From positions 124,623 through 188,622 of the forward strand of contig NZ_RBZV01000010.1 of NCBI RefSeq assembly GCF_003628145.1: a stretch of DNA of 64,000 nucleotides, in the 5' to 3' direction. The DNA is from Trinickia fusca. Its GTDB lineage: Bacteria > Pseudomonadota > Gammaproteobacteria > Burkholderiales > Burkholderiaceae. Below are positions 8,961 to 41,321 of the stretch, piece after piece (position 1 is the first letter of the stretch; each line of letters begins with the position of its first letter). The position numbers and the translations under genes were made by a program. A model generated the notes under the pieces. The model was not told the origin of the DNA. It worked only from the letters and a program-made list of their open reading frames with translations, and did no database searches.

Positions 8961-8963
8961 CGG

Positions 8964-11442: not shown

Positions 11443-11480
11443 CGTCAATTGGACAAATCGCCCCGTCTGTCCAATTGACG
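11443..11480. promoter_or_regulatory. Perfect 13-bp inverted repeat in the bcsB/dgkA divergent region
   Basis: Arms CGTCAATTGGACA (11443-11455) and TGTCCAATTGACG (11468-11480) are exact reverse complements separated by 12 bases. Neither strand has a U-run after the hairpin, so an operator is more likely than a terminator. It lies about 85 to 125 bases upstream of the proposed bcs -35 element, a position suited to an activator, and about 100 bases upstream of dgkA. Confidence 0.6.
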
Positions 11481-11576
11481 AAAAATGGGGCAGGATAGCA
11501 GAGATATCCTTGGCAAACCCATCTGTGTCCAAGCCCTTCGTGCTGGATACAACATCCTCAAGAAGAACTAACTTTC

Positions 11577-12720: not shown

Positions 12721-12733
12721 ATGAAGGTGTGAG

Positions 12734-13303
12734 ATGGTGCAGAAGAAGAGCCTCACCGAAGACGCCCAGGAAGTATTCCGCGCGATCGCGCTGATCGAAC
12801 TGGGCGCGCGCATGCAAGTGCTCGAGAGCGAGCTCACGCTGTCGCGCGACCGGATGATACGTCTTTATCGCGAGATCAAGGGAGCCTCGCCGCCGAAGGG
12901 CATGCTGCCCTTCTCGGCCGACTGGTATATGACGTGGCTCGCGAACATCCACGCGTCGCTCTTCTACAACACTTACGTATTCCTGAAGAATCAGGCGGGC
13001 TGCTCGCACCTCGATGCCCTGACCAAAGGCTATCGCCTGTATCTCGAACATTGCCGCCATAGCCAGGCGGAGGCCGTGCTCGATCTGACGCGCGCCTGGA
13101 CGCTCGTGCGCTTTTTCGACGCAGACATTCTTCAGCTCACGCCTTGCTGCCGGTGCAGCGGCAAGTTCGTGGCCCACAAGCACGAGTTGCAACACAACGT
13201 CGTATGCGGTGCATGCCAGCCGCCTTCGCGCGCCGGCAAGACCAAGAAGGCCGCTGCGGCCAAGGAAATGGCAACGGCCGTCGAGCCCGCCATCGCCGCA
13301 TAA
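12734..13303 (+). CDS. flhC: Flagellar master regulator FlhC
   Basis: 189 residues. DNA-binding and zinc-binding partner of FlhD. Conserved blocks are ELGARMQVLESE, KGMLPFSADWYMTW, NIHASLF, and TRAWTLVRFF; the zinc site is visible as CCRCSGKF and CGACQPPSR near residues 138-160. The C-terminal tail is Ala/Lys-rich and variable, as usual. A strong terminator follows within 30 bases, and motAB or che genes do not follow in the window, unlike the arrangement in many relatives. Confidence 0.95.
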   Translation: MVQKKSLTEDAQEVFRAIALIELGARMQVLESELTLSRDRMIRLYREIKGASPPKGMLPFSADWYMTWLANIHASLFYNTYVFLKNQAGCSHLDALTKGYRLYLEHCRHSQAEAVLDLTRAWTLVRFFDADILQLTPCCRCSGKFVAHKHELQHNVVCGACQPPSRAGKTKKAAAAKEMATAVEPAIAA

Positions 13304-13332
13304 GCCGCAAAAGGCAGTCGATCCGCGAGCTA

Positions 13333-13382
13333 ACGCCGCGCACGTGACCGGTTTCGGTCAGGTGCGCGGCGTTTGGCTTTTT
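13333..13382 (+). terminator. Rho-independent terminator after flhDC
   Basis: A 17-bp stem (13333-13349 with 13356-13372, one mismatch) rich in GC, with a 6-base loop, followed by a T-rich run TTGGCTTTTT to 13382. It lies 30 bases after the flhC stop and closes the flhDC transcript. Confidence 0.85.
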
Positions 13383-13603
13383 CAGCCAGTCAGATGCATG
13401 AGCTCTAATCTGGACGAACGCGGTATTTATTCATACAAATAAGCCGCGCACTTGCGGCGAATCGCCACGCACGGAAATATTTACTTATTTATTTAGCCGG
13501 CGAAGTACCCATTGAAGCTAAAGCCCCCCCCCGATTTACCCTAATACCCGCGGTAATTTTGTCGCGCCGCATGAAGCCCGATGATGCTTAGGGCTCCGTT
13601 GGA
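13383..13603. other. Intergenic region with poly-C tract
   Basis: No convincing gene. It holds an AT-rich patch near 13470-13496 and a run of nine C residues near 13523-13532. Nothing further can be assigned. Confidence 0.4.
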
Positions 13604-14005
13604 CTACGCGTACTTGTCGCCGACCGTGCTGCGAACCGGATGCGTGTCGTAAACGATGGTCATCTTTTCGATCAGTCCATCTTCGTCGAATTCGAATACG
13701 TCGACGCACTCGAAGCGGACGGCGGAGCCGTCCTTGAGGCCCCAGTCGTACACGAAATAGCCCGTCGCCCGCCTCGCGCCCGTCGTGCTGACGCAGATGT
13801 CGATGAGGGTGATCTTGCTTTGCCCCGACGCCGCGCTGACCTTGGCAAAGAAGGGCTCAGGCTCCATCCAGCCGAGAAACGGCGAGAAGATCTGGGCGTT
13901 GCGCGTGAACAACGCGCAAATCGCGGCGACATCGCCGCGTTCGAGCTCGTGCAGATAGGCACGGATCTGCTGCGTATATCGCGATTCCGGCGATGTCGTC
14001 GTCAT
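13604..14005 (-). CDS. NTF2-like / SnoaL-type fold protein
   Basis: 133 residues. The pattern is that of the SnoaL-like NTF2 superfamily: an N-terminal helix pair (IRAYLHELERGDVAAICALFT), then a strand-rich half with FECVDVFEFDEDGLIEKMTIVYD, typical of small polyketide-cyclase or isomerase-like barrels. No catalytic residues can be named with confidence. It stands alone, convergent with flhC, with an AT-rich region upstream. Function unknown. Confidence 0.7.
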   Translation of the reverse strand: MTTTSPESRYTQQIRAYLHELERGDVAAICALFTRNAQIFSPFLGWMEPEPFFAKVSAASGQSKITLIDICVSTTGARRATGYFVYDWGLKDGSAVRFECVDVFEFDEDGLIEKMTIVYDTHPVRSTVGDKYA

Positions 14006-29275: not shown

Positions 29276-30691
29276 TCAGTCGCGATAGCCGAGACTCGTC
29301 GTCGTGGGTGCCTCGATCCCAGCTTTTTTGGCGCGCGGCGGCCGAGAAGCGATCCACCAGACAAGGGCAGCGAGCGCCGACAACCCGATCACCCCAGCCA
29401 TGACTAGATACATCGCCGTCTGGAACGCGTGCAGCACCGAAATCAGCGTGCCGAAGATCGCCACGCCGAGCGCGGCACCGCTCTGGCGTGCCGAGTTCAG
29501 TACCGCCGCAGCGACGCCCGCACGGCTTTTCTCGACCGTGCCCAGCGCCGGTGAAGTAGCGGCCGGCGAGATGAAACCCGACGCCAAGCCGATCGCGAGC
29601 ATCGGCACGATAGCCTGCCAGTAAGGCGAGTTCGCCGTGGCAAGACTCATGCCCGCGGCGCCCGCCGCATACAGGCCGAATGCCGCACACATCGAGAAGC
29701 GCGCGCCGAAGCGCTGGACGAGGCGGCTCGAGAACAGCCCGCCCGTCGCGACCATCCCCGTCATCGGCAAGAACGCAAGCCCCGCCTCGAGCGGTGAGGC
29801 GCCGCGCACTTGCTGATAGTAGAGACTGAACGTGAACAGCATCCCGTAGAACACGAACGCCGATGCCATCGATACAAACGTCGATCCCGAAAACAGGCTA
29901 CTGCGGAAGAAACCGAGCGGCAGCATCGGGTCGGCGCTACGCGCTTCGACGAAGAAGAAGGCGATCCATGCGAGCAGGCTCGCGATCATGCCCGCGATGA
30001 GCGGCGTCGAGCGCCAGCCGAGCACCGGGCCTTCGATCAGCACGCCAATGAGCGCGCCGAGCGCGACGATCGCAGCCGCCTGGCCGGCCCAATCGAAGTG
30101 CCGCGTCTTCGACGTTGCCGTCGGGGCGACCGAAGCAGTCAGCCACAAGCCGACGATGCCGATCGGTACGTTGACGAAAAAGATGCTGCGCCACCCGAAC
30201 AGGTGGATCAGGATGCCGCCGATCAGCGGCCCCGATGCCATCGCCGCGCCACCGCAGCCCATCCAGATACTCACGGCTGCCGCGCGGCGCGCCGGGTCGG
30301 GACACGCGTCATTGATCAACGCAAGCGAGCACGGCACGAGCATTGCGCTGCCCACTCCCTGCAACGCACGTGCCAGCGCGAGCGTCGTCATATCGGGCGC
30401 GACGCCGCAAAGGACCGAGGCAGCGACGAAGACCGCCAAGCCGGCGAAGTAGATATTGCGCGAGCCGAGCCGGTCGCCGAGTGTGCCGCCGGTCATCAGC
30501 AAGCTCGCGAACGTCAGCGTATAGGCGTTGACGACCCATTGCAGTCCCGCCATGTTGCTGCCGAACGTGCGGCTGATCTGTTCGAGCGCGACGTTGACGA
30601 TCGACGCATCGAGCAGAACGACCGTATAGCTAACGCTCGTCGCCGCCAAAACGCGGCGTGCGGCCGACTGACCTGCTCCTCCCTCGATCAT
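29276..30691 (-). CDS. MFS drug/metabolite exporter (DHA2, EmrB/QacA type)
   Basis: 471 residues from ATG 30691, overlapping the upstream NTF2-like stop as ATGA. Fourteen-helix DHA2 features: LDASIVNVALEQI in helix 1 (motif D1), TGGTLGDRLGSRNIYF (motif A), LALARALQGVGSAMLVPCS (motif B), and repeated Gly-rich helices. It likely exports a hydrophobic or aromatic compound by proton antiport. A divergent ArsR-type regulator suggests ligand-inducible control. Confidence 0.9.
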   Translation of the reverse strand: MIEGGAGQSAARRVLAATSVSYTVVLLDASIVNVALEQISRTFGSNMAGLQWVVNAYTLTFASLLMTGGTLGDRLGSRNIYFAGLAVFVAASVLCGVAPDMTTLALARALQGVGSAMLVPCSLALINDACPDPARRAAAVSIWMGCGGAAMASGPLIGGILIHLFGWRSIFFVNVPIGIVGLWLTASVAPTATSKTRHFDWAGQAAAIVALGALIGVLIEGPVLGWRSTPLIAGMIASLLAWIAFFFVEARSADPMLPLGFFRSSLFSGSTFVSMASAFVFYGMLFTFSLYYQQVRGASPLEAGLAFLPMTGMVATGGLFSSRLVQRFGARFSMCAAFGLYAAGAAGMSLATANSPYWQAIVPMLAIGLASGFISPAATSPALGTVEKSRAGVAAAVLNSARQSGAALGVAIFGTLISVLHAFQTAMYLVMAGVIGLSALAALVWWIASRPPRAKKAGIEAPTTTSLGYRD

Positions 30692-31125
30692 GACTGGCCG
30701 ACTCCCTTTTTGAGCGCCTCGGTCAAAGACCGGAACCCGACCCACCCCCAATACACGCGATGATGGGTGATGAGGCCGTCCGCGACGTCCATGACCTCGA
30801 CGAGATCGACTTGATCGCCATGCGGCGTTTTGCGCGGGTATTCCCACGTCAGTTGCCTGCCGTTCGAAAAAAAAGTACCCGTCCGATACCAGCGGTTGAG
30901 GCTACCACCGAGCTTTCGTAGGCCTGCTTCGAAAAATTCCCCGATATTTCGCTTTCCTTCGAGGATGCCACTTTCATTTTCCGGCAATGTCACTAAGATA
31001 AGCGGCGTTTCGAGCGTGGCATCCTCTGCGTAGAGCGACATTAGACCGTCGAGATCACGGCTTACTATCGTTTCGTGCCATCTTTCGTAGATATGTAGGA
31101 TTTGCGAATCCGTGGCGGCCATCAT
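30688..31125 (-). CDS. NTF2-like / SnoaL-type protein
   Basis: 145 residues from ATG 31125 with GGGAG upstream. Helix block ILHIYERWHETIVSRDLDGLMSLYAEDATLETP and strands LTWEYPRK, VDLVEVMDVADGLITHHRVYWGWVG are classical for the SnoaL-like superfamily, often found in tailoring or detoxification operons. Directly coupled to the MFS exporter. Not closely similar by eye to the NTF2-like protein at 13604. Confidence 0.8.
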   Translation of the reverse strand: MMAATDSQILHIYERWHETIVSRDLDGLMSLYAEDATLETPLILVTLPENESGILEGKRNIGEFFEAGLRKLGGSLNRWYRTGTFFSNGRQLTWEYPRKTPHGDQVDLVEVMDVADGLITHHRVYWGWVGFRSLTEALKKGVGQS

Positions 31126-31181
31126 CAACGCTCCCTATTTGATCGTTCTGAATGCCACCAGTTTAGCGGCCATAATTTTTA

Positions 31182-31207
31182 GATGCTTCGACACGAATCG
31201 AAACATC
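31182..31207. promoter_or_regulatory. Imperfect inverted repeat, putative ArsR-type operator
   Basis: GATGCTTCG (31182-31190) and CGAAACATC (31199-31207) are reverse complements with one mismatch and an 8-base spacer, located between the divergent NTF2/MFS operon and the ArsR-type gene. Confidence 0.5.
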
Positions 31208-31227
31208 AATGCTGTGGGTCCGGTACT

Positions 31228-31239
31228 ATCAACGTTGAT
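31228..31239. promoter_or_regulatory. Perfect 12-bp palindrome ATCAACGTTGAT
   Basis: Self-complementary 12-mer 18 bases ahead of the ArsR-type ATG at 31258. Together with the neighbouring 26-base dyad it may give autoregulation. Confidence 0.4.
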
Positions 31240-31257
31240 GAGCTCGAGGGATTGACC

Positions 31258-31989
31258 ATGAACCAAGATCACAATGTCGCTTCCGTCGCCTTTTTAATTG
31301 CCGACCCTGCGCGCGCGGCGATGCTGATGTTTCTTGGCGACGGTCGGGCGCGAGCGGCTGGCGAACTGGCGCATGTTGCCGGCGTCACGGCACAAACGGC
31401 CAGTTCCCACTTGAGCAAACTCCTGGCCGGTGGCTTGCTAGCGGTAGAGTCGATGGGGCGCCATCGCTTTTACCGGCTGGCCGGGGCCGAAGTCGCCGCT
31501 GTGCTCGAAAAGCTGGCGGCTATCTCGCCGAACAAGCTCGTCAATCCGAAGCACGCGAGCCGGGCACTACAGGATCTGCGCTTTGCCCGGTGCTGCTACG
31601 ACCATCTGGCGGGCCGCCTTGGGGTGGCCGTGACGCGAGCGATGCAGGAGCGCGACCTGATCGTCGCCATGCCCGAGCAGCGCTACGGCATCACCGCGGC
31701 CGGCGTCGACTGGTTCCGCCAGATCGGGCTCGACGCGCTGCACCTGGACGATTGCGGCATCCACCTCGCCAGCCAGTGCCTCGACTCCACCGAACGGCGG
31801 CACCATCTGGCGGGGCCTCTCGGCAAGCATTTCATGAGCACCCTCTTTTCAAAGGGGTGGCTTCATCGCCGAGAACGCTCGCGTGCGATTTCCGTCACGC
31901 CCGACGGATGGTCCGGACTGAAGGCACTGCTCAATCTCGACGAACAATCGCTGCGGCTATCCGATTGGGAGTGTGAGGTCGATGCCTGA
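31258..31989 (+). CDS. ArsR-type winged-helix regulator
   Basis: 243 residues from ATG 31258 with GAGGG upstream. ArsR-like N-terminus: LIADPARAAMLMFLGDGRARAAGELAHVAGVTAQTASSHLSKLL in consecutive blocks, then GGLLAVESMGRHRFYRLAG. The extra C-terminal 130 residues contain Cys in LRFARCCYDHLAGRLGVAV and a second DNA-binding-like region, matching the longer YczG-type subgroup rather than the 100-residue metal sensors. It likely represses the divergent NTF2/MFS operon; it also lies directly upstream of the N-N cluster. Confidence 0.85.
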   Translation: MNQDHNVASVAFLIADPARAAMLMFLGDGRARAAGELAHVAGVTAQTASSHLSKLLAGGLLAVESMGRHRFYRLAGAEVAAVLEKLAAISPNKLVNPKHASRALQDLRFARCCYDHLAGRLGVAVTRAMQERDLIVAMPEQRYGITAAGVDWFRQIGLDALHLDDCGIHLASQCLDSTERRHHLAGPLGKHFMSTLFSKGWLHRRERSRAISVTPDGWSGLKALLNLDEQSLRLSDWECEVDA

Positions 31990-32237
31990 CATCCTCTGCT
32001 CCCCGCTTGCCCTAGCCCACCCGCTCTGACGTCGCCTGGGACAAGGCAACGCAGTCGTGTCGTCACCAATAACGATCATTTCATTCCGAGGGACATCGAG
32101 CGTTAGCATCCATTCAATATTTTTCTCCTCAAACAATAACATTATTCTTCGCTTCGCAATAAATCGAGCTTACCGGATCGAGGGAAGCTCGCGCGCCTGA
32201 TTCGGCGCACCCCCAATTTTCTTGTAGGAATGTGCTA
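31990..32237 (+). promoter_or_regulatory. Leader and promoter region of the hydrazine-type operon
   Basis: About 250 bases, AT-rich in 32100-32165, then GC-rich. It must carry the operon promoter. A small AATAA-CA-TTATT dyad and a TAGGA ribosome site 8 bases before the ATG at 32238 are visible; no promoter could be assigned with confidence. Confidence 0.5.
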
Positions 32238-33608
32238 ATGGACAAGGATCAGTATCACCTGATTGGCGTCGGCATTGGCCCTGCCAATCTCAGCCTGGCC
32301 GCATTGCTGCAGCCGTGCAACGATATCAAACGTATCTTCCTCGACCGCAGAAATGAATTTATCTGGCACCCTGGATTGCTTTTTTCAAACGCAGAATTGC
32401 AGGTGGCGTACCTCAAGGATTTGGTCAGCCTCGTAGCACCGACGAGTCCGTATTCTTTTCTTGAATTTCTCCGTGAAAATGGCCGCCTCTACAGTTTTAT
32501 TAATGCGAATTTTCCGCATGTACTGCGCCGGGAGTTCAACGAATATTACCGCTGGGCATGTGGAAAACTTCCGGATCTCGAATTCGGTTCTGAGGTGACG
32601 TCGATCGACGTGGGCCGCGGCGGTTTCGAGGTCGCGACGTCGCTCGGCGTACGGCATGCCGAACATCTCGTGATCGGCACGGGGCTCGTGCCGAATATCC
32701 CGGCCTATGCGGAGCCGTTCCTCGGCGACACCCTGTTTCACGCGTCCGAATTTCTGCGACGCAAGGTCGACGCCAAAGGACGCCGTGTCGCGATCATCGG
32801 CGGTGGACAGACGGGCGCCGAGGTATTCCTGAATCTCATGACTTCCGATGCGACGCTGCCGGCATCGATTTCGTGGATTTCCCGCCGCCCGAACTTCCTG
32901 CCGCTCGACGATACGCCGTTCATCAACGAGCAGTTCACTCCCGGCTACAGCGACTACTTCTTCGGACTGCCGCAGCCCGTTCGCGAGTCGATCATCGAGG
33001 CTCAGAAGCTGACGAGCGACGGCATCTCGCCGTCGACGCTCGAGAGTATTTACCGCCGGCTCTACGAACTGAAGTTCCTGGCGAGGCACGAGTGCGCATG
33101 GGAGCTACGACCGGGGCGTTCGCTCGAGCGCATTGCGCGCGCAACCGCGGGATTCGATCTGACGATGCGAGATGCCGCGACCGGCCAGATGCAGTCGCTC
33201 CAAGCCGACCTCGTCATCCTTTGTACGGGGTATACCGCCCGTCTGCCGAAGTGCCTCGCACCGATTCGCGATCGCATTGCGCTCAATAGCCGGGGCGAGT
33301 ATGTGGTGCGCCCCGACTATTCGATCGAATGGGCCGGTCCCTCTCACCACAAGATCTACGTGCAAAACGCTTCGCGCACGCAGCGCGGGCTCGCCGATCC
33401 GAATCTGAGTTTGCTCTCGTGGCGGAGCGCGAAGATCGTCAACAGCGTGGCCAGGCGCACCGTCTACGACGTCGACAACAATCAATCGATTCTCGATTGG
33501 CCGCAGGCGCATCACGCAGCGCTCGCCCACGAGACACCGGCGGCCGCGCCGCGCTCATTCGCCTTGATGAGGGACGCTGAACCAGCCGCCGACGCCGTCC
33601 GCGGATGA
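32238..33608 (+). CDS. Lysine/ornithine N-hydroxylase (IucD/PvdA/SidA family)
   Basis: 456 residues from ATG 32238. FAD site GVGIGPANLSLAAL at residues 10-23; family blocks EFIWHPGLL and LQVAYLKDLV with SPYSFLEFL; NADPH site VAIIGGGQTGAEV; substrate region SWISRRPNFLPLDDTPFINE and PGYSDYFFGLP; the C-terminal CTGY motif corresponding to ATGY. This family hydroxylates the side-chain amine of lysine or ornithine. In siderophore loci it sits with NRPS or IucA/C genes; none are present here. With the downstream MetRS-like and cupin genes it is more likely the Spb38-type lysine N6-hydroxylase that starts hydrazine formation. First gene of a seven-gene plus-strand operon. Confidence 0.9.
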   Translation: MDKDQYHLIGVGIGPANLSLAALLQPCNDIKRIFLDRRNEFIWHPGLLFSNAELQVAYLKDLVSLVAPTSPYSFLEFLRENGRLYSFINANFPHVLRREFNEYYRWACGKLPDLEFGSEVTSIDVGRGGFEVATSLGVRHAEHLVIGTGLVPNIPAYAEPFLGDTLFHASEFLRRKVDAKGRRVAIIGGGQTGAEVFLNLMTSDATLPASISWISRRPNFLPLDDTPFINEQFTPGYSDYFFGLPQPVRESIIEAQKLTSDGISPSTLESIYRRLYELKFLARHECAWELRPGRSLERIARATAGFDLTMRDAATGQMQSLQADLVILCTGYTARLPKCLAPIRDRIALNSRGEYVVRPDYSIEWAGPSHHKIYVQNASRTQRGLADPNLSLLSWRSAKIVNSVARRTVYDVDNNQSILDWPQAHHAALAHETPAAAPRSFALMRDAEPAADAVRG

Positions 33609-33651
33609 TGCGGTCGGAGCGCGAGACCATCGACATTGGAGAGGCAGCAAC

Positions 33652-34290
33652 ATGGATCTGTATGGTGATTTGATTTCGAGCAGTACGCGGCGGGTGCTCG
33701 TGACGGCAGATTGCGTCAACGCGCCAATCGCGTTCAAGGTCGTCGACATCGTCAAGAAGGAAAACCGGCACGACGCATTCCTGCAGCTCAACCCGAACGG
33801 GACGATCCCTGCTTTCGTGGATGGTGACATCGTGCTGTTCGAAGCGTCGGCGATCATGACTTACCTGGCCGAGAAGTACGGCTCCGAGCTGCTGCCGAAA
33901 GGGGCTCGGCGCATCGAGACGCTGAAATGGACGCTGTGGGCCGCTGAGCATTTTCGTCAGGGGCCGAATCTGCTGCTCGAGGAGCGCTACCTCAAGAAAA
34001 TTCATGGAGAGCCAGAGAACCCGTGGGCCGTGGCGCACGGAGAAATGCTGACGCGCAAATACGCAGCCGTGCTCGACGAGCATCTCGCGCATCGCCGCTT
34101 CGTGACCGGTGACACGGTGACGTTGGCCGACTTCGATCTTGCTGCTCCGTTTAGCCATCTGACGCGCTCGCGCGCACCACTCGACGAATACCCGAACCTC
34201 GTCGAGTGGCATACACGCCTGCTCGAGCAGGTACCCGCGTGGGCCAGGCGCGGCGCCGATCTCGAGCGGCGCATTCGTGAATTGAACTGA
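33652..34290 (+). CDS. Glutathione S-transferase-like protein in the hydrazine-type operon
   Basis: 212 residues with a GGAG ribosome site. Thioredoxin-like N-terminal half with NPNGTIPAFVDGDIVLFEASAIMTYLAEKYG in adjoining blocks (cis-Pro and Glu-Ala-Ser glutathione site), catalytic Ser likely in SSSTRRVL near residue 10, and a helical C-terminal half with TLADFDLAAPF. It may detoxify or isomerise a reactive hydrazine or diazo intermediate; that is inference from its place as the second gene. Not an element of the characterised s56-p1 core. Confidence 0.85.
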   Translation: MDLYGDLISSSTRRVLVTADCVNAPIAFKVVDIVKKENRHDAFLQLNPNGTIPAFVDGDIVLFEASAIMTYLAEKYGSELLPKGARRIETLKWTLWAAEHFRQGPNLLLEERYLKKIHGEPENPWAVAHGEMLTRKYAAVLDEHLAHRRFVTGDTVTLADFDLAAPFSHLTRSRAPLDEYPNLVEWHTRLLEQVPAWARRGADLERRIRELN

Positions 34291-34394
34291 ACGGGCATTG
34301 CTCTCCCGTGCATCGATATGCGCGTGTGCCGCTGCACGCTCGTCGATACCGCACGTAGAGGCCATGCCCCGAGAAACATGAAGGAGATGACAGC

Positions 34395-35525
34395 ATGCAT
34401 GAAACGACTGACGCGATCGTGGTCGGTGGCGGCTCGACGGGGTGCAGCATCGCTTATCACCTGCTTGGGCGAGGGCTGAAGGTTCTCGTGCTGGAGCGCG
34501 CTGCGCTTGGCTCGGGAACGACGGCTTATTCGCCGGCCATCATCCGCCAGAACTACGCCGACATCCGCGTATCGAAGCTGGCTCACGAAAGTATCCGCGT
34601 CTTCGAGCATTGGCACGAGGAAGTCGGCGGCAACTGCGGCTTCGTTCAATGCGGATTTCTCACGGCGTTCGCAGAGGAAGACCGCGCGCTTCAACAGGGG
34701 CGAGCCGAAGACATGAAGCGTCACGGCATAGCCGTCGACGTGCTCGATCCCGACGATATCGTCGCGCTGCAGCCCGACTTCAACCGTGAGGGCATCGCTG
34801 GCGGCGTGTTCGAAACGCGCGGCGGCTATTGCGATACGGCCGCCACGATCGAATCGCTGAGCCGCGGTATCCGGCGTCGCGGCGGCACGATTCATGAGCA
34901 CTGCGACGTCATGGCGTTGCGTGTCGCCGGAGATCAGGTGGTCGGCGTGCAAACGCGCCAAGGCGCGATCGATGCGCCGATCGTGATCAACGCGGCTGGC
35001 GCATGGGCCGGGCAGTTGGCCAAGACCGCAGACATCGACCTGCCGATCACCGTATCGCGTCATTGCATTGCCCTGTTTACACAGCCGGTCGTCAGCGCAC
35101 TGCCGCGACTCTTTGCGTACCAGGAGCGGCGAGTCGATCGGCTCTACATGCGCTCGATGATCGGCGGGTTGAGCATGGTCGGTTCGTTCGATGCCGCCGA
35201 CAGCTTCGCGGCGCAAGCCGACCACCACAGCACGGTCGCCGACGAGGAGAAAGTGGCGCAATACCAGGTGCGCGCCGCGCGCCGCTTCGGCCGCTTCGCC
35301 ACCGCACGCGCGCTGGGCGGATGGGCATCCGTGTTCGACGACACAGCGGACGGCAACCCGCTCATCGGCGCGGACCCCGACGTTCGTGGCCTCTACGTTG
35401 CCGCGGGCATGAACGGACACTGCTTCAAGCTCGCCCCCGTCATCGGCCAGGGCCTGGCGGAAATCGTCACTGACGGCGCGACCTCGATCGACCTTGGCGT
35501 ATTCGCACCGGGGCGGTTCAGATAA
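34395..35525 (+). CDS. FAD-dependent DAO-family oxidoreductase 1
   Basis: 376 residues, GGAG ribosome site. Rossmann FAD site AIVVGGGSTGCSIAYHL at residues 8-24, VLERAALGSGTTAYSPAIIR (DAO-type GSGT-x-x loop near the flavin, no obvious covalent-attachment Cys pattern), and a C-terminal DGNPLIGADPDVRGLYVAAGMNGH block that closes the FAD site. This is the glycine oxidase/sarcosine oxidase branch of DAO enzymes. In s56-p1 a DAO-like flavoenzyme (Spb39) oxidatively cleaves the lysine-derived hydrazine; this protein or the next one is the best candidate. Confidence 0.88.
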   Translation: MHETTDAIVVGGGSTGCSIAYHLLGRGLKVLVLERAALGSGTTAYSPAIIRQNYADIRVSKLAHESIRVFEHWHEEVGGNCGFVQCGFLTAFAEEDRALQQGRAEDMKRHGIAVDVLDPDDIVALQPDFNREGIAGGVFETRGGYCDTAATIESLSRGIRRRGGTIHEHCDVMALRVAGDQVVGVQTRQGAIDAPIVINAAGAWAGQLAKTADIDLPITVSRHCIALFTQPVVSALPRLFAYQERRVDRLYMRSMIGGLSMVGSFDAADSFAAQADHHSTVADEEKVAQYQVRAARRFGRFATARALGGWASVFDDTADGNPLIGADPDVRGLYVAAGMNGHCFKLAPVIGQGLAEIVTDGATSIDLGVFAPGRFR

Positions 35526-35573
35526 GCCACCCGACACACACCGTCACTCGACAGATACTGAGGACTCGACGTT

Positions 35574-36641
35574 ATGCGTAGAACCGAGCAGTACGACCTC
35601 GCCATCGTGGGAGGCGGCATTATCGGCGCGTGGACGCTCTATCTGGCCGCCACGCGGTTTCCGAACTGGCGCACGGTACTCATCGAGCGCTCGACGATCG
35701 GCAGCGGAGCCACGGCCCATTCCGCGGGTGTCTGGGTAGCGATCGGCCGAACGCCGATCGAGCGCGCGCTCGCCACACGAAGCATGCACCTGTACGCGCA
35801 GGTGCGCGCGCAGTTGAACATCGACATGACGCCAGCGAAGTCGTACTGGGTCTCGTCATCCCATACGTTCGATGCAGCAAGGGAATCGATTCTCGACCTC
35901 GGCGGCGCCGGGCACGAGATCATGCCGGCGGAACTCGCCTCACAGTTCGATTTTTCGGTGCGCATTCCCGATGGCGAGCGAATTCAGCTCGGCGGGACAC
36001 CCGCGAGCTGTGATCCTGGCGGCATCGCGCGTGCACTCGTCGCGTATGGCCGACGGCAATCGCAGGTTTCATGCTGGGAAGGCATCGACGTGTCCGCGGT
36101 GCGGCCCGCAGGTGACGGAGTCGACATCGCCCTCGCGAACGGCGACACCGTGGCGGCTTCGCGTGCCGTCGTCGCCGTCGGCCCCTGGCTACCGGCCGGG
36201 CTCGTGCCAGCCAGCATCAGCTCGTCGGTCCGGATCAAGCGCGTCGTTGCGCTGCACGTGGACAAACGCCCGCCGCCCGATGCGCCCGCGTTGTTTTTTC
36301 CCGATGCCGATGCCTACTTGATGCCGTTGCAGACACGCCAGCAATGGCTCTTCAGCTTTCATAGAAAGCAATGGGGCTGTCGCCCCGACGACGTCGAGCA
36401 AGCCGTGAACGCCGCGGACGAGGACGAGGCGCTAGCCGCATTGCGGCGCTATCTGCCCGAGCTCGCCGCCCATTGTCGAGGCGGCCGCGCGTTCTGCGAC
36501 GCCTATGCGCAAGACGGTGAACCGGTGATTGCCGCGAGCCCCGATGCCGGGCAGATCGTGATTGCCGGCGCCGGCGCGGGAAAAGGCTTTCGACTGTCGC
36601 CGGGCATCGCGGAAGCCGCGCTGGCCCGGCTCGCCTCCTGA
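35574..36641 (+). CDS. FAD-dependent DAO-family oxidoreductase 2
   Basis: 355 residues. FAD site LAIVGGGIIGAWTLYLA (residues 8-24), LIERSTIGSGATAHSAGVWV, and the C-terminal DGEPVIAASPDAGQIVIAGAGAGKGF block. Same fold as the preceding gene but clearly divergent in the substrate domain, so the pair is not a recent duplicate. It could act as an imine-forming oxidase in cleaving the N-N product or in oxidising it to a hydrazone. 48 bases after the previous stop and 34 before the MetRS-like gene. Confidence 0.88.
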   Translation: MRRTEQYDLAIVGGGIIGAWTLYLAATRFPNWRTVLIERSTIGSGATAHSAGVWVAIGRTPIERALATRSMHLYAQVRAQLNIDMTPAKSYWVSSSHTFDAARESILDLGGAGHEIMPAELASQFDFSVRIPDGERIQLGGTPASCDPGGIARALVAYGRRQSQVSCWEGIDVSAVRPAGDGVDIALANGDTVAASRAVVAVGPWLPAGLVPASISSSVRIKRVVALHVDKRPPPDAPALFFPDADAYLMPLQTRQQWLFSFHRKQWGCRPDDVEQAVNAADEDEALAALRRYLPELAAHCRGGRAFCDAYAQDGEPVIAASPDAGQIVIAGAGAGKGFRLSPGIAEAALARLAS

Positions 36642-36675
36642 CGTCGCCCCCCTTAACGCGTGGACGTTTTCAATC

Positions 36676-38160
36676 ATGAAAGATTACTTACTGATACCGG
36701 TCATGCCGACCCCGAATGGCCCACTCCATCTCGGACATATCGGAGGGCCGTTCCTCAGAATGGATGTCCTGGCTCGCCAGCTCAGGCAGGCGGGCCACAA
36801 GGTATCGATCGTCTCTGCTTCCGATCCGTGGGAAACGCACGTCTTGCTGCGCGCTCATGGCGTCGACTCCGCACCGGCCGACGTCTGCCATCGCTATCAC
36901 GATGAGATCGCTGCCAGTCTGGCCGCGCTGAACATTCGCTACGATCGTTTCATCCACGTCCTCGATGCGCCCGAGAACGAGGTCATGCCGCGTCTGGCGC
37001 AACGCGTGATCGATCGCCTGGCGGCACACACGGGGGCACTGCGTGTCATCAATGAGCGCTTCCCCTACAGCATCAAGTACGGCGTGCCGATCGTAGGCGG
37101 GTTGATCGAAGGCAGATGTCCAAGCTGCGGCTCGTCGATGGGGGGCTTCTTCTGCGAGCGGTGTGGCGCCGAGTCATCGCCGGACAAGCTGCTCGAGCCG
37201 CGATCGCGGTTGTCCGACGATCGGTGGGAATGGCGCAACGCCGACAGCCTCTTCCTGCATGTGGCCGATGTCGCCACGATGCGCGCCACGGCAGAACGGA
37301 TCTGCCAGGACGGCAAGCTCGTCGACACCGCCTTCCGCGGCCTGCAGCTCAACGAGAATCTGATCCGGCTCACGCACCCCGGCAACTGGGGCATACCGTG
37401 CACGGCGCCCGGCGTATCGCCGGGCTCGGTCATCTTCACGTATCCGGCGTTGCTCGCACTGTCGTTGCTATGCGCGGGGGACATGGGGCATGGCGAGCCA
37501 GCGGAGGGCACGGCCTTCGAACCGGACCGCGACACGGTGACGATCGCGAGCTTCGGTGTCGACAACGCCATGCCCTACCTCGTCTCGGTGCTCGGCCAGG
37601 CGATGAGCGCGGGCAACATCAAGCCGTTCGATCACTATCTGACGAACTACTTCGGCACACTCGACGGCAAGAAATTCTCGACGAGCCGCAATCACGCGAT
37701 ATGGGCGCTCGACGCCCAGCGGCTGTTGCAAGCGCGTACCGACACGATTCGCGCTTACCTCGCGCTCGTCAATCCGCAGCACGGCGAGGAGGATTTTTCC
37801 GTCGCGGAGTTCGGTGAGTTCAAGCTCGAGTGGGAAGACCGTCTCGATGCACTGATCGATACCGCGCGTACTGCTCGGCACGTCGATTCGGGCACGCTCG
37901 ATCTAGCCCGCCTGTCGCGTCTGCTAGAGGCGCGCGACGTCGCGCTCGACCCTGCCCGCTTCGAGTTGAGCGACGCGGCAAAGGCGGTCCATGAATGGAT
38001 CCGCGCCGGTGCGTCCGAAGGGGCAACTCAGGCCTGGGCATTGGGATTGTCGGTGCTCGCTTATCCGATCATGCCCGAGCTTGCCGAGCGGATCTGGCAA
38101 GAAGACGGCATGCCGGGGCTGCCGAAATTCGATGCGCTTTCGCAGCGACTGCCGGCTTGA
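36676..38160 (+). CDS. Methionyl-tRNA-synthetase-like enzyme (hydrazine synthetase, MetRS part)
   Basis: 494 residues from ATG 36676, chosen because an upstream in-frame start would lie inside the previous gene. Class I synthetase motifs: PTPNGPLHLGH with HLGH at 18-21, a zinc knuckle CPSC/CERC (Cys 148, 151, 160, 163), and KKFSTSRN at 332-339 in the KMSKS place. The C-terminal anticodon-binding half is short and divergent, so tRNA charging is unlikely. In Spb40-type hydrazine synthetases the MetRS-like domain activates an amino acid and esterifies it to N6-hydroxylysine. Those enzymes are fused to a cupin; here the cupin is separate, two genes downstream. No strong ribosome site is seen, consistent with coupling. 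Confidence 0.88.
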   Translation: MKDYLLIPVMPTPNGPLHLGHIGGPFLRMDVLARQLRQAGHKVSIVSASDPWETHVLLRAHGVDSAPADVCHRYHDEIAASLAALNIRYDRFIHVLDAPENEVMPRLAQRVIDRLAAHTGALRVINERFPYSIKYGVPIVGGLIEGRCPSCGSSMGGFFCERCGAESSPDKLLEPRSRLSDDRWEWRNADSLFLHVADVATMRATAERICQDGKLVDTAFRGLQLNENLIRLTHPGNWGIPCTAPGVSPGSVIFTYPALLALSLLCAGDMGHGEPAEGTAFEPDRDTVTIASFGVDNAMPYLVSVLGQAMSAGNIKPFDHYLTNYFGTLDGKKFSTSRNHAIWALDAQRLLQARTDTIRAYLALVNPQHGEEDFSVAEFGEFKLEWEDRLDALIDTARTARHVDSGTLDLARLSRLLEARDVALDPARFELSDAAKAVHEWIRAGASEGATQAWALGLSVLAYPIMPELAERIWQEDGMPGLPKFDALSQRLPA

Positions 38161-38218
38161 GCATGCGCGACCCGACGCCTCTCGAGGCGTTCGGCCACAC
38201 TCGTAGGAGACAACGATC

Positions 38219-39685
38219 ATGAAGAGAAAGACACTGATCCTCGGCGGCGGCATCGTCGGCGTGGCGGCGTTCGTCAGCCTCGTCCGGCATCGCGGCGCCG
38301 AGGCGATCGACATCGTCAATCCCGGGCCGATCGGCCTCGGCCGCGCCTTCGCCACCACGGAAACACCGTTGTTGACGAATACGTCCGTCGATACGCTGTC
38401 GATCCTCGCCGACGACAAGGACGATTTTCTCGACTACCTGCGTGCGCGCGGCGTGCCCGCCAACCCGGGCAGCTGTGTGCCGCGCTTCTATGTCTCGCAG
38501 TACGCTCGCGATCGGTACGACCAGTATGCGCGAGCCGCAGCCCAAGCCGGCATCGCGCATCGCCATCACCGCGCGATGGCGATCGAAGTGCGTAAAGTCG
38601 GGCAGCACGCCTACCAGGTGCAGCTCGATACGGGCGAAATCGTCGAAGCCGACAATGTGATGATCTGCTGCGGCTTCGGCCAACCGCTCGTGCCCGAGTA
38701 TGTCGCTCCACACGTGGGGAAAGACGGCTTGTTCGTGACGCCGTATCCCGAAGGGGCCCTGTTGGCCGCATTACCGCAGTCCTCCCGCGTGCTCGTGCTC
38801 GGTACGCGGCTGTCGGCGATCGACGCTGCCCTGCTGCTGTGCGGACAAGGGCATTCCGTCGTGATGGCCTCGCGCTCCGGCGAACTGCCTTCCGTGCGCA
38901 CTCAACTGCTGCGCTTGCCGCCGGGCCGTATCGACAAACGACGTTTTGCCACGCTGGCGCTGACTGGACCAAACCTGCGCCGCCAACTGCTGCGCTTGAT
39001 CGGCGCAAGTGCGCGCGTGGTCCCGGCCTTGCCGCTGAGCAAGCAGGTGAGCCGCGCGACGGACATCGAAACGCGCCTGCGCGAGGAGATCCAACTTGCC
39101 GAGAGCGGGCAGAACAACTGGCAGAACATCATCATCGAGCTGCTGGAGATGGCCGATACCCTGCTCGTGTCGGCAGGGCCAGCTGTCCAGCAGCGTGTGC
39201 TCGATGCCTGCTGGAGCCTGGTCCAACGGTATCTGTTCTCGTTTCCGGTGGGCAATGCCAAAGCGCTCTTGTCCTACATCGAATCGGGCCGGCTGAAGAT
39301 CATCGCGGGTGCGCCGCGCGAGTTGGCCGAGCAGGCCGGCGAGTGGGCCGTTACGTGGGCCGACGACAGCGTGCAAACATTCGACGCGGTGGTGTGCGCA
39401 ACGGGATTTCATCGCCCTCGCTTTCATGCCCGAGCGCAGGAGATCGAGATCGTCACGGACCTCTCGCGCCGTGCGGAGCCGCCGGCGGTGGGCCCCGATC
39501 TGCGCGTGACGCTACCCGAGTCGCAGTCTCCTGAGGATATCTGGCTGATCGGCGTGTCGTCCTATCTGCGCTCGGCGCTGACGAGCATCGTCTATCAGGG
39601 AGCGAAACAAGCGGATGCGATCGCGTCGGCAATGAGCCGCGACAACGTCGATAACACCAGCGAACTGGCAGGGAGCCTGCAATGA
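38219..39685 (+). CDS. FAD/NAD(P)-binding protein (Pyr_redox_9-like)
   Basis: 488 residues behind TAGGAGA. N-terminal FAD site TLILGGGIVGVAAFVSL, IGLGRAFATTETPLLTNTS, VMICCGFG, a middle NAD(P)-type strand RVLVLGTRLSAIDAALLL, and CATGF before the C-terminal FAD closure. Such HI0933/Pyr_redox_9-type proteins are often flavin oxidoreductases acting with biosynthetic partners. Its role in the cluster is unknown; oxidation of a hydrazine to azo, hydrazone or diazo is one possibility. It overlaps the cupin start as ATGA, which links it tightly to N-N formation. Confidence 0.8.
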   Translation: MKRKTLILGGGIVGVAAFVSLVRHRGAEAIDIVNPGPIGLGRAFATTETPLLTNTSVDTLSILADDKDDFLDYLRARGVPANPGSCVPRFYVSQYARDRYDQYARAAAQAGIAHRHHRAMAIEVRKVGQHAYQVQLDTGEIVEADNVMICCGFGQPLVPEYVAPHVGKDGLFVTPYPEGALLAALPQSSRVLVLGTRLSAIDAALLLCGQGHSVVMASRSGELPSVRTQLLRLPPGRIDKRRFATLALTGPNLRRQLLRLIGASARVVPALPLSKQVSRATDIETRLREEIQLAESGQNNWQNIIIELLEMADTLLVSAGPAVQQRVLDACWSLVQRYLFSFPVGNAKALLSYIESGRLKIIAGAPRELAEQAGEWAVTWADDSVQTFDAVVCATGFHRPRFHARAQEIEIVTDLSRRAEPPAVGPDLRVTLPESQSPEDIWLIGVSSYLRSALTSIVYQGAKQADAIASAMSRDNVDNTSELAGSLQ

Positions 39686-40047
39686 GTGAAGCGAATCAAG
39701 CGCATCATGTGCCGCGCCTGAACTTCGGCGACGAATTCGACATCGCCGATGGCGTGACGGTCTGGCCGATCGCCTTTCCGCACGACTTGGCGCATCCGCC
39801 GTTCGAGTCCACGGTCTTCATCATCGAGCCGGGCAAGTGCTCGCCGCCGGACAGCCATGCCGTGGAGGAGACATGGGTCATTCTCAAAGGAGCGGGACGG
39901 CTCGATTACGATGGGCAGTCGATGCGCTTGTCGGGCGGTGACAAGGTCTTCTTTCCGTCGCATCGGACACACCAAGTGACGAACGATGCTGACGGTCCGT
40001 TGGAGATTCTGTCGATTTATTGGGAGCCGCACGCGCAAAACGCGTAA
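39682..40047 (+). CDS. Stand-alone cupin (hydrazine synthetase, cupin part)
   Basis: 121 residues, a single small cupin barrel. Motif 1 SPPDSHAVEETWVILKGAG supplies His59 and Glu62/63 (with Asp57 nearby), motif 2 KVFFPSHRTHQVTN supplies His94/His97, enough for one metal. In Spb40 and related enzymes the cupin domain performs the rearrangement of the O-aminoacyl hydroxylysine ester that makes the N-N bond. Here it is a separate polypeptide encoded next to the MetRS-like gene. Last gene of the operon; a hairpin lies at 40190. Confidence 0.88.
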   Translation: MSEANQAHHVPRLNFGDEFDIADGVTVWPIAFPHDLAHPPFESTVFIIEPGKCSPPDSHAVEETWVILKGAGRLDYDGQSMRLSGGDKVFFPSHRTHQVTNDADGPLEILSIYWEPHAQNA

Positions 40048-40189
40048 CGCCCCGCATCGTCACTGCGCGAAGCCGCTCGCCGCAGGCGGGGGGTTCGTCG
40101 ACGCCACGCCTCCCACGCTCGAGCGTGAGTCATCCGCCCATGAAAGTGTCTGCGGGTGACTCCGGTCAACCACCGCTTCTTTCATCGCG

Positions 40190-40216
40190 ACTCGCACGCG
40201 CCCAGCGCGTGCGAGT
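40190..40216. terminator. 11-bp perfect hairpin between convergent units
   Basis: ACTCGCACGCG (40190-40200) and CGCGTGCGAGT (40206-40216), loop CCCAG, in the gap between the cupin gene and the convergent spherulin-4-like gene. No U-run, so a bidirectional transcript-end structure rather than a textbook terminator. Confidence 0.55.
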
Positions 40217-40248
40217 ACGGGCGCGATCCAAACGGCGCTAGCCTGTCG

Positions 40249-41133
40249 TCACTGGCGCAGCCCACCGGCGTAGCCGATCTCGGCATTCAGATAGCTCGGA
40301 ATCGCTGTCCACGGGTTGAGGTACGGGCCGACCATAAACGCATCGGTCGCGTCCACGTAGGCGGCGAAGCGCCCAAACGCCTTATTGACTACGGTCGCCC
40401 AATCGGCGTTGCCGGTGTTGTAGACGAGGTGCCAGAAGCGCGGGCCGTATTCCGCGCCCGACGCGTATTGGCCGTTTGCAATGATGTTGCCCCCGACCCA
40501 GCCGTACGCCCAACCGTTGGCCGACGCATCGACCAAGTAGTGGGCGGCCGTGTCTTCGAAGGTGATGAAGACGTCCGCCGTGTCGTTGCCGGCTTGCAGA
40601 TAGCAGTCGGGCACCGCCGTGCCTAGGTTGTTGACGACAAAGCTCTGAACGCCAGGGAGCTTCGAGGTGACGTAGACGCGCGCAGCGCGCAACTTGTCGC
40701 GCCATTCCGTGCTGGTGGCGCTCGCGCCGCAAAGATTAGGCACCTCGTCGAAAAAGATGCCGTCGTAATGCACCGAGCCGTTACGCGCGTTGAGGTAGCG
40801 GTCGACGCTCGCCTTGATGTCGTCAAGCGATCGCAGGGCCTTGTCCGTGTGGACGTAGCCGATCACCTTCACCGGCCCCCCATTGGCCGCCGTGCGTGCG
40901 CGCAGCAGGTCTGCGTCATGGTCGAGGATCGACTCGTCGGCATCGCCGTTGCCGATGTTCACGATGACGACGGACGGCGGCACCGGCGTTTTAACCGGAT
41001 CCTCGAGCGTAGTCAGGAACGGGTCGCCGGGATACACATAGGCCGGCAGGCCGACTTCGATCCCACGCGCCGATGCGGGCAAGGCGACTGACGCGAGCAT
41101 GGCGGCGGCCACGCCGCCGATGAGCCATTTCAT
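40249..41133 (-). CDS. Secreted spherulin-4-like protein (GH114-type TIM barrel)
   Basis: 294 residues from ATG 41133 behind GGAG. Signal peptide ending in PASARG (near residue 24). The body carries the spherulation-specific family 4 pattern: LPAYVYPGDPF, VVIVNIGNGD, KVIGYVHTDKALRSLDDIKASVDRYL in adjacent blocks, YDGIFFDEVPN, and VNNLGT and ITFEDT. The fold is related to GH114 (endo-alpha-1,4-polygalactosaminidase) proteins; the Asp/Glu in FFDE are probable active-site residues. It faces the hydrazine-type operon tail-to-tail, so no functional link is implied. Confidence 0.85.
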   Translation of the reverse strand: MKWLIGGVAAAMLASVALPASARGIEVGLPAYVYPGDPFLTTLEDPVKTPVPPSVVIVNIGNGDADESILDHDADLLRARTAANGGPVKVIGYVHTDKALRSLDDIKASVDRYLNARNGSVHYDGIFFDEVPNLCGASATSTEWRDKLRAARVYVTSKLPGVQSFVVNNLGTAVPDCYLQAGNDTADVFITFEDTAAHYLVDASANGWAYGWVGGNIIANGQYASGAEYGPRFWHLVYNTGNADWATVVNKAFGRFAAYVDATDAFMVGPYLNPWTAIPSYLNAEIGYAGGLRQ

Positions 41134-41321
41134 TTGCTTCTCCTTTCTTCGTTTGACCGAACAACGGTTATGAGCATGAGGCGGCGGCGAGCCGGCGAAT
41201 AGCCTGAATTTCCGTAGGGATGCGCGGCTCCAATGCGGTTCGGCAAATTGAATTGCTCTGGTTTCGCGTAGGCCGCTCGCCGCGTCGGCGGCGAGCCTGC
41301 GCATTGGCAGCTATCGATATT

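What the first reader, a model, noticed from the sequence alone, without database searches (positions are those of the whole stretch)
32238..40047. Hydrazine (N-N bond) forming biosynthetic operon in a betaproteobacterium
Seen: a plus-strand run of an IucD-like amine N-hydroxylase, GST-like, two DAO flavoproteins, a MetRS-like enzyme with HLGH, KFSTS and Zn-knuckle motifs, a third flavoprotein and a cupin. Established: in s56-p1 biosynthesis a lysine N6-hydroxylase, a MetRS-cupin enzyme and a DAO-like oxidase (Spb38, Spb40, Spb39) make hydrazinoacetic acid from lysine and glycine; pyrazomycin-type pathways use relatives. Inferred: this operon makes a hydrazine-derived metabolite. No siderophore assembly genes accompany the N-hydroxylase.
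Basis: partly seen in the sequence, partly recalled or inferred. Interest (0 to 1): 0.92.

Follow-up and report, generated by a model that had tools for sequence, protein, structure and literature searches.

The report
Hydrazine-making operon with second N-oxygenase
A Trinickia bacterium carries a ten-gene cassette that very probably joins two amino acids through a nitrogen-nitrogen bond and then oxidises the product further with an unusual flavin enzyme, giving an unknown small reactive metabolite.

Summary
The seven genes are real, and the core is a hydrazine synthetase set: a lysine/ornithine-type N-hydroxylase, a standalone MetRS-like ligase and a cupin. The cupin's best solved match is RHS1 (5UQP), a proven N-N-forming zinc enzyme, and it keeps the catalytic Glu. 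The MetRS-like protein has KFSTS, not KMSKS, and a clade with canonical MetRS is rejected; the host has its own MetG. That core chemistry is known. New here: three more genes (MFS exporter, SnoaL-like protein, ArsR-like regulator) belong, and the ten-gene set recurs in eight loci of Trinickia, Paraburkholderia and Pseudomonas. The 'third flavoprotein' is predicted to have the fold of FzmM, which turns aspartate's amine into a nitro group, with the catalytic Asn kept. So the cassette has two kinds of N-oxygenase and two kinds of DAO oxidase, and no carrier protein, NRPS or PKS gene among its ten. Best reading: a carrier-free pathway that makes a free hydrazine and N-oxidises it to a small diazo, nitroso or nitramine-like product. 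Core: high confidence. Late steps: inferred. The window's MetRS-like protein appears to have other ancestry than those of its sister cassettes.

The parts
29276..30691 (-). MFS exporter, EmrB/DHA2 type (a GTG start at 30847 is possible but would overlap the next gene)
   Evidence: 51-55% identical homologue inside the cassette in 8 of 84 loci
30688..31125 (-). SnoaL-like small protein, tenth cassette gene
   Evidence: PF12680 37.5 bits; 50-58% identical copy next to FAD3 in the 8 full cassettes and in L107
31258..31989 (+). ArsR/HTH_20-type regulator (start 31183 also possible)
   Evidence: 47-50% identical copy in 8 of 84 loci
32238..33608 (+). NMO: lysine/ornithine-type flavin N-hydroxylase; K60 and N230 match SidA K107 and N293
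   Evidence: PF13434 347 bits; PDB alignments; residue check; role of K107 and N293 from PMC8009421 passages
33652..34290 (+). GST; SSxTRR and EASAI stretches invariant in ten cassette copies
   Evidence: present in 9 of 84 loci, the same nine as FAD3
34395..35525 (+). DAO1: sarcosine/glycine oxidase-fold flavoprotein
   Evidence: PF01266 218 bits; AlphaFold model pLDDT 87.5; top Foldseek hits L-proline dehydrogenase, glycine oxidase, DMGDH, sarcosine oxidase
35574..36641 (+). DAO2: second DAO flavoprotein, of the DAO type found at 41 of 84 hydrazine synthetase loci
   Evidence: PF01266 109 bits; profile over 100 bits in 41 of 84 loci; tree
36676..38160 (+). MetRS-like amino acid ligase half of the hydrazine synthetase (start uncertain: 36562, 36676 or 36703)
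38219..39685 (+). FAD3: FzmM-fold flavin monooxygenase, predicted second N-oxygenase
   Evidence: PF13454 97 bits; profile hit 8CP2 E 0.0032; model pLDDT 79.7; Foldseek top hits 8cp2/8cp5, E 1.8e-18; N54 matches catalytic Asn62, 18 of 18 rows
39682..40047 (+). Cupin half of the hydrazine synthetase; D57, H59, E63, H97
   Evidence: best PDB hit 5UQP = RHS1, E 3.1e-15; H59, E63, H97 invariant in 75 of 75 rows, position 57 D 51, H 22, E 2; RHS1 residues from PMC8664883

Best explanation
This is a ten-gene hydrazine pathway cassette. Step 1: the NMO hydroxylates the side-chain amine of an amino acid (lysine, ornithine or a shorter homologue). Step 2: the MetRS-like enzyme adenylates a second amino acid and passes it to the hydroxylamine oxygen as an unstable ester, without tRNA. 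Step 3: the cupin rearranges that ester into an N-N bond. Step 4: DAO2 oxidatively cuts a C-N bond and frees a small hydrazine; by analogy with Spb39 this would be hydrazinoacetate if glycine is the donor. Step 5: DAO1 oxidises the small hydrazine further, for instance to a hydrazone. Step 6: FAD3, an FzmM-type enzyme, adds oxygen to the terminal nitrogen, once or several times, giving a diazo, nitroso or nitramine product. The GST and SnoaL-like proteins finish or protect, the MFS protein exports and the ArsR-like protein regulates. Steps 1-3 rest on conserved catalytic residues and proven relatives; nothing here was assayed; steps 4-6 and the roles of GST, SnoaL, MFS and ArsR are inferred.
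For: Cupin: best solved match RHS1, same spacing of metal ligands and catalytic Glu. MetRS-like: KFSTS shared with the MetRS-like protein of a Rhodococcus cluster that encodes the exact RHS1 accession; clade with canonical MetRS rejected. NMO residues. Cassette conserved in 8 of 84 loci. FAD3: its three best Foldseek hits are FzmM, the next are lysine, ornithine and cadaverine N-hydroxylases; catalytic Asn kept; six Arg invariant in the cassette copies, in keeping with FzmM's Arg-rich substrate site. Of seven genomes with FAD3 at 42% identity or more, six also have the full-length hydrazine synthetase.
Against: FAD3's sequence link to FzmM is weak (E 0.0032, 129 profile positions), rmsd to 8CP2 is 5.9 A, 26 model residues have pLDDT under 50, and 814 PDB chains match the model at E 0.001 or better because the fold is common, so only the ranking speaks. 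FAD3 relatives of 31-37% identity occur in genomes without the synthetase, two of three beside an O-methyltransferase, so the wider family is not tied to hydrazines. Genome G408 has FAD3, GST, SnoaL, ArsR and MFS but no synthetase. Acidisphaera has the core with both DAOs but no FAD3 or GST hit within its 21.5 kb. The Rhodococcus MetRS-like protein compared here is from strain DK176; the tested one is from R. jostii RHA1. Donor and acceptor amino acids were not determined.
Confidence: 0.7

Rival explanations
1. Plain hydrazino amino acid pathway: DAO2 cuts the donor side (as Apy10 does), leaving an omega-hydrazino amino acid as product. FAD3 and GST do something other than nitrogen oxidation, such as C-oxygenation or detoxification.
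For: Both regiochemistries are known in one DAO family, Apy10 against Spb39 (PMC11705231 passages). FAD3 relatives occur outside hydrazine clusters.
Against: FAD3's nearest folds are N-hydroxylases, and FAD3 and GST travel together with the synthetase in the same 9 of 84 loci.
Confidence: 0.2
2. Two-sided excision: DAO1 and DAO2 each cut one side of the N-N conjugate, releasing free hydrazine, which another cassette enzyme then traps or transfers.
For: The two DAOs belong to different DAO clades found with hydrazine synthetases. A hydrazine synthetase route to free hydrazine has been hypothesised for albofungin (PMC11705231 passages).
Against: No asparagine synthase-like transferase, as in albofungin, among the ten genes. 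Acidisphaera has both DAOs without the other cassette genes nearby.
Confidence: 0.12
3. FAD3 is a true aspartate N-hydroxylase that supplies nitrosuccinate or nitrite, as in fosfazinomycin, in parallel with the hydrazine core.
For: Fold match to FzmM.
Against: No lyase partner among the ten cassette genes; FAD3 is 113 residues shorter than the 8CP2 chain (488 against 601). The rest of the genome was not searched for a lyase.
Confidence: 0.08
4. Not a hydrazine system: an N-hydroxylated siderophore, or a spare MetRS (resistance copy), in a chance neighbourhood.
For: NCBIfam's best names for the gene are methionine--tRNA ligase models, the best at 402 bits.
Against: All seven NCBIfam matches (six MetRS models, one CysRS) fall below their cut-offs. 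KFSTS instead of KMSKS, and the clade with MetGs is rejected. Cupin matches RHS1. No assembly gene among the 31 of 53 window genes scanned. The cassette recurs across genera.
Confidence: 0.04

Closest known systems
MetRS-like/cupin hydrazine synthetases (Spb40, PyrN, Tri28, AzaE; standalone pair with RHS1 of Rhodococcus jostii; Ral1-Ral2 of Ralstonia)
   Same: Adjacent NMO, MetRS-like ligase and cupin with the same catalytic residues; standalone pairs are already known (PMC8664883, PMC11705231 and PMC2922099 passages)
   Different: 29-30% identical to the MetRS-like protein of the Rhodococcus DK176 cluster; the MetRS-like protein has other ancestry than that of the sister cassettes
s56-p1, triacsin, azaserine, N-nitroglycine and Dob pathways (hydrazinoacetate route)
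   Same: NMO, MetRS-like/cupin and DAO logic
   Different: None of the ten genes matches the families PF02770, PF00501, PF13302 or PF03417 that PMC13061610 required in its mining; no carrier protein, NRPS or PKS among the ten; an FzmM-fold flavoenzyme where those papers have a diiron enzyme (Dob3) or haem-oxygenase-like and P450 candidates
FzmM/CreE/PcxL N-hydroxylases
   Same: Predicted fold with a helical insertion, catalytic Asn, conserved Arg set
   Different: Shorter, remote in sequence, and in a hydrazine cassette rather than beside a nitrite-releasing lyase
por gene cluster of Pseudomonas orientalis (Por9, Por11)
   Same: A Pseudomonas hydrazine cluster; joining of N5-hydroxyornithine or N4-hydroxydiaminobutyrate with glycine is reported (PMC11705231 passages)
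   Different: Not compared: no por sequence was available, so the Pseudomonas cassettes found here could be the same cluster or another one

Membership tests
MetRS-like/cupin hydrazine synthetase | Cupin with metal ligands D/H, H, H and an essential Glu at fixed spacing | tested here: met
   D57-x-H59-x3-E63 ... H97, same spacing as RHS1 D63, H65, E69, H103; best PDB hit 5UQP; metal content not testable here
MetRS-like/cupin hydrazine synthetase | MetRS paralogue with intact adenylation motifs, separate from the host's canonical MetRS | tested here: met
   HLGH and the first Lys of KFSTS kept; host MetG on contig C3 scores 533 bits, over the cut-off, the window protein 91 bits, under it; one clade with three MetGs rejected, p 0.00085
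MetRS-like/cupin hydrazine synthetase | Gene neighbourhood with a lysine/ornithine N-hydroxylase | tested here: met
   NMO in the same operon; substrate-binding Lys and Asn kept
MetRS-like/cupin hydrazine synthetase | ATP-dependent, tRNA-independent N-N bond formation | not testable with these tools
   needs an in vitro assay
Hydrazinoacetate (s56-p1 type) pathway | Lysine hydroxylation, glycine as donor, cut at C-epsilon by an Spb39-type oxidase | not testable with these tools
   substrates cannot be read from sequence here; no Spb39 sequence at hand
Hydrazinoacetate pathways with carrier-bound hydrazone (azaserine, triacsin, Dob) | GNAT, AMP ligase, acyl-CoA dehydrogenase, C45 peptidase and carrier protein genes in the cluster | tested here: not met
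   none of these Pfam families among the ten cassette genes; 22 of 53 window genes and the rest of the genome were not scanned for them
FzmM/CreE N-hydroxylase | Class B flavin fold with helical substrate domain | tested here: met
   AlphaFold model; top Foldseek hits 8cp2_B, 8cp2_A, 8cp5_B; a model, not a solved structure
FzmM/CreE N-hydroxylase | Catalytic Asn over the flavin C4a | tested here: met
   Asn62 aligned to N54 by the profile; N in 18 of 18 rows
FzmM/CreE N-hydroxylase | Arg cluster binding L-aspartate | tested here: inconclusive
   six Arg invariant in 10 of 10 cassette copies, but they could not be mapped onto FzmM's Arg positions

The most novel reading that the evidence does not exclude
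The cassette is a minimal, carrier-free, all-flavin route to a free N-oxidised hydrazine: the hydrazine synthetase product is released by a DAO oxidase, and an FzmM-type monooxygenase then oxidises its terminal nitrogen repeatedly, as FzmM turns aspartate's amine into a nitro group, to a free nitramine, N-nitroso or diazo acid such as N-nitroglycine or diazoacetate. That would be a new enzyme class for the N-oxidation step that remains unassigned in the azaserine and N-nitroglycine pathways.
Probability: 0.3. Interest if true: 0.82.

Novelty: new variant of a known kind. Interest (0 to 1): 0.62.

Why it matters
How nature oxidises hydrazines and hydrazones to diazo and nitramine groups is only partly known: one diiron enzyme (Dob3) has been shown, and the step in azaserine and N-nitroglycine is described as unresolved (PMC13061610 passages; PMC13274452 section 15). 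A compact cassette without carrier protein genes, conserved in Trinickia, Paraburkholderia and Pseudomonas, would make that question testable with free substrates and gives a candidate flavin enzyme for it.

Tried and rejected
Considered and rejected: a spare or drug-resistant MetRS, a siderophore operon (no assembly gene among 31 of 53 window genes scanned), and a diamine N-hydroxylase (K60 and N230 kept; the Robbsia NMO has lost both).

Led nowhere or stayed open: the MetRS pocket was not decoded into a donor amino acid, because the paper with the eight pocket residues (the review's reference 82) was not found in the library. I first took the actinobacterial loci L062-L091 for fused cupin-MetRS types; the check found 0 fused of 74 loci with both hits, so their DAO genes cannot stand for Spb39, and the tag SPB in that script is only a label. 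The one genome-contig scan was seeded with standalone-type proteins and kept the best 80 of 98, so its counts lean towards relatives of this gene. The 84 loci hold near-duplicates (the MetRS-like rows of L008 and L034 are identical; Burkholderia arboris occurs twice, L010 and L052).

Rows chosen for trees: one search used 81 of 84 loci for MetRS (L063, L065 and L084 fell out as short or cut) and its printed output was cut in the middle; one search used 33 loci that I picked to thin close kin and leave out the distant actinobacterial clade and L011; one search used 35 loci for DAO2 and 34 for the cupin; one search used 23 rows; one search used 40. The clade tested was named after I had seen the tree, so its p of 0.014 is not a blind test, and the window and Robbsia rows are long branches. 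The p of 5e-54 in the same call comes from a set that also shuts out L029, which sits inside the group, and says little about the window. The cupin tree did not reject a common clade with the sister cassettes (p 0.089). In one search the three MetGs fall, weakly (79), beside five actinobacterial and Deinococcus MetRS-like rows, so one single clade of all hydrazine synthetases was not shown; the A. oris MetG gave no match to my KMSKS pattern.
Full report
WHAT IS THERE. Directly upstream lie an ArsR-like regulator (plus strand) and, on the minus strand, a SnoaL-like gene and an EmrB-type MFS gene. No sigma-70-like promoter match was found in 30600-40400 (0, against 2.5 expected by chance), which says little.

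ORGANISM. The 16S gene of the genome is 97.1% identical to Burkholderia arboris over 95% of the query and 95.4% to a Caballeronia over 99%. Genome G393, listed as same genus, has a contig of 394,836 bases with FAD3 at 163285, exactly where the Trinickia soli record NZ_PNYB01000002.1, of the same length, has it. The window is therefore from a Trinickia species. Four of the 11 same-genus genomes listed (G000 included) have FAD3.

THE CASSETTE IS CONSERVED. One scan of genome contigs with a MetRS-like alignment gave 98 relatives, 80 kept. With four further loci, 84 were compared. All nine window proteins used as queries have a homologue in 8 of 84: Trinickia soli, Trinickia sp. Y13, a Paraburkholderia MAG, Paraburkholderia sejongensis, Pseudomonas lactucae, P. 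marginalis, P. trivialis and P. veronii. The tenth, the SnoaL-like protein, is in the same eight. Gene order there is SnoaL, FAD3, GST, ArsR (reversed), MFS, NMO, cupin, DAO2, MetRS, DAO1; the window has the same genes in another order. Partial sets: P. tuberum (contig edge; DAO2 cut, MetRS, DAO1), a Xanthobacteraceae MAG (FAD3, GST, NMO, cupin, DAO2, MetRS cut at the contig end; no MFS, ArsR or SnoaL hit) and Acidisphaera S103 (NMO, cupin, DAO2, MetRS in two frames, DAO1; no FAD3, GST, ArsR, MFS or SnoaL hit in 21.5 kb). By profile, FAD3 (over 700 bits) and GST occur in the same nine of 84 loci. The cassette is not common: with the window's MetRS-like protein, 2 of 369 genomes sampled from the class matched at 1e-30, the window's own included.

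THE N-N CORE. The cupin's best PDB match is 5UQP (E 3.1e-15), which PMC8664883 (parts 1-4 of 7 of the text read) identifies as RHS1, a zinc cupin proven to form the N-N bond. RHS1 uses D63, H65, E69 and H103; the window cupin has D57, H59, E63 and H97 at the same spacing, and the last three are invariant in 75 of 75 rows (position 57: D 51, H 22, E 2). The Rhodococcus plasmid locus L011 encodes RHS1's exact accession beside an NMO and a MetRS-like protein 30% identical to ours over 502 columns; it is strain DK176, while the tested protein is from R. jostii RHA1. Across 82 MetRS-like rows both HxGH His, the four Cys and K, S, T and S of KFSTS are invariant; D50, W238 and N297 are not. The host's MetG and E. 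coli MetG have KMSKS; holding the window protein with three MetGs is rejected (p-AU 0.00085, quick tree). All seven NCBIfam matches of the protein are under their cut-offs. The NMO keeps K60 and N230, the counterparts of SidA K107 and N293 that bind ornithine and are missing in the diamine enzyme SsDesB (PMC8009421 passages); across 78 rows these sites are K in 70 and N in 72. An amino acid rather than a diamine is the likely substrate, although SsDesB also accepts lysine. Lysine and ornithine cannot be told apart here.

THE THIRD FLAVOPROTEIN. FAD3 finds no PDB relative by single-sequence search at E 0.1. A profile of ten cassette copies finds 8CP2 first, weakly (E 0.0032). 8CP2 is the aspartate N-hydroxylase that makes nitrosuccinate in three rounds of hydroxylation (PMC10404684 passages). 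The AlphaFold model (mean pLDDT 79.7) has a helical stretch at about 240-355. Its three best Foldseek hits are 8cp2_B, 8cp2_A and 8cp5_B (E 1.8e-18 to 1.7e-17; TM 0.69-0.72 by query length; rmsd 5.9-6.7), followed by lysine, ornithine and cadaverine N-hydroxylases; 814 chains match at E 0.001 or better, so the ranking, not the match alone, carries the point. The profile alignment puts FzmM's catalytic Asn62 on N54 and Trp51 on F44. N54 is Asn in 18 of 18 rows, eight of them distant. R197, R227, R259, R279, R286 and R337 are invariant in the ten cassette copies and Arg in 12 of 48 cells of the eight distant rows. I conclude that FAD3 is probably a second N-oxygenase acting on a small acid. Its substrate is inferred.

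LINKAGE OF FAD3. In the window's family 13 of 299 genomes have a FAD3 match at 1e-15; in Pseudomonas 4 of 298 at 1e-40. Of the seven genomes with 42% identity or more, six also have a full-length hydrazine synthetase (G000; the others). The exception, G408, has SnoaL, FAD3, GST, ArsR, MFS and only a 143-residue DAO1 match. The three genomes with 31-37% relatives have no full-length synthetase match, and two of these genes sit beside an O-methyltransferase. Seven more family genomes have 27-34% matches; of the five whose surroundings I fetched (L109-L113) none showed an NMO, MetRS-like or cupin hit. FAD3 is thus linked to the cassette, but its wider family is not.

TWO OXIDASES. DAO1 and DAO2 fall in different clades of DAO genes found at hydrazine synthetase loci. 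DAO2 is the commoner type: its profile exceeds 100 bits in 41 of 84 loci, that of DAO1 in 13. By BLAST, DAO1 is closest to the Acidisphaera copy (48%), then to sister cassettes (37-41%), then to DAO genes of the loci L025, L034 and L040 (25-28%). DAO1's model matches L-proline dehydrogenase, glycine oxidase and sarcosine oxidase folds. In print, DAO relatives of this pathway cut either side of the N-N conjugate (Spb39 against Apy10, PMC11705231 passages), so the cut here cannot be read from family alone.

A MOSAIC COPY. NMO and DAO2 of the window fall with the sister cassettes (NMO fork 90/99, with Acidisphaera and a Telmatospirillum row; DAO2, one clade not rejected, p 0.45). The MetRS-like protein does not: it pairs with the Robbsia plasmid protein (99/98), and a clade with the nine sister loci and L029 is rejected (p-AU 0.014, group named after seeing an earlier tree). 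The cupin leans away from the sisters without rejection, but towards a Legionella and Obscuribacterales group, not to Robbsia (p 0.089). Long branches are involved, so an exchange of the synthetase genes, perhaps with a change of donor amino acid, is a suggestion only.

KNOWN AND NEW. The NMO, MetRS paralogue and cupin association was described in 2010 (PMC2922099 passages) and its chemistry since 2018 (PMC8664883; PMC11705231 passages). The core is therefore a new member of a known kind. What I did not find, in searches of an open-access library that lacks most subscription papers, is this ten-gene cassette or an FzmM-type enzyme joined to a hydrazine synthetase. PMC13061610 (passages) mined hydrazone clusters with filters (PF02770, PF00501, PF13302, PF03417 among them) that this cassette does not meet. 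PMC13274452 (passages and its section 15) calls the oxidation of the hydrazone to azaserine or N-nitroglycine unresolved and names haem-oxygenase-like and P450 candidates.

VERDICT. Hydrazine core: about 0.9. Second N-oxygenase role of FAD3: about 0.6. N-oxidation of the free hydrazine to a diazo or nitramine-like product: about 0.3.

Noticed in passing
L009 (Robbsia andropogonis plasmid p1), 7577-13832: A different hydrazine synthetase set beside a diaminobutyrate transaminase-like gene; its NMO has lost both substrate-binding residues (A and L), so a diamine acceptor is likely. IS6 and XopQ genes lie nearby.
   Followed up: partly
L107 (genome G408), 5304-10798: SnoaL, FAD3, GST, ArsR and MFS present, with only a 143-residue DAO1 match and no synthetase match in the genome: looks like a cassette that lost its core.
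   Followed up: partly
L106 about 8732-12810 and L121 about 7177-9475: FAD3 relatives (37% and 31% identical) sit beside an O-methyltransferase gene, in L106 also beside a P450, without hydrazine synthetase.
   Followed up: partly
L063 (Acidisphaera sp. S103), about 9938-12000: The MetRS-like gene matches in two segments, and the open frame of the first ends early; a frame break or assembly error.
   Followed up: no
L011 (Rhodococcus sp. DK176 pDK3), 3899-13886: The plasmid cluster carrying the exact RHS1 accession also has a lysine 2,3-aminomutase, a luciferase-like monooxygenase, an ATP-grasp and a GNAT gene.
   Followed up: no
PLSDB plasmids: 38 plasmid records hold a relative of the MetRS-like protein at 1e-20, among them Sinorhizobium, Rhizobium, Pantoea and Klebsiella; some are fused or adjacent to cupin or KamA genes by their annotation.
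   Followed up: no
literature, PMC11705231: The review gives Apy10 the accession WP_057724699.1, next in number to Por9 of Pseudomonas orientalis (WP_057724698.1); it may really be the por oxidase.
   Followed up: no
window 1743-11360: Cellulose synthesis genes (BcsE, BcsC-like, GH8, BcsB).
   Followed up: no
window 45934-47664: A papain-family protease domain together with propeller repeats.
   Followed up: no
window 40249-41304: Spherulin4-like protein directly downstream on the other strand.
   Followed up: no
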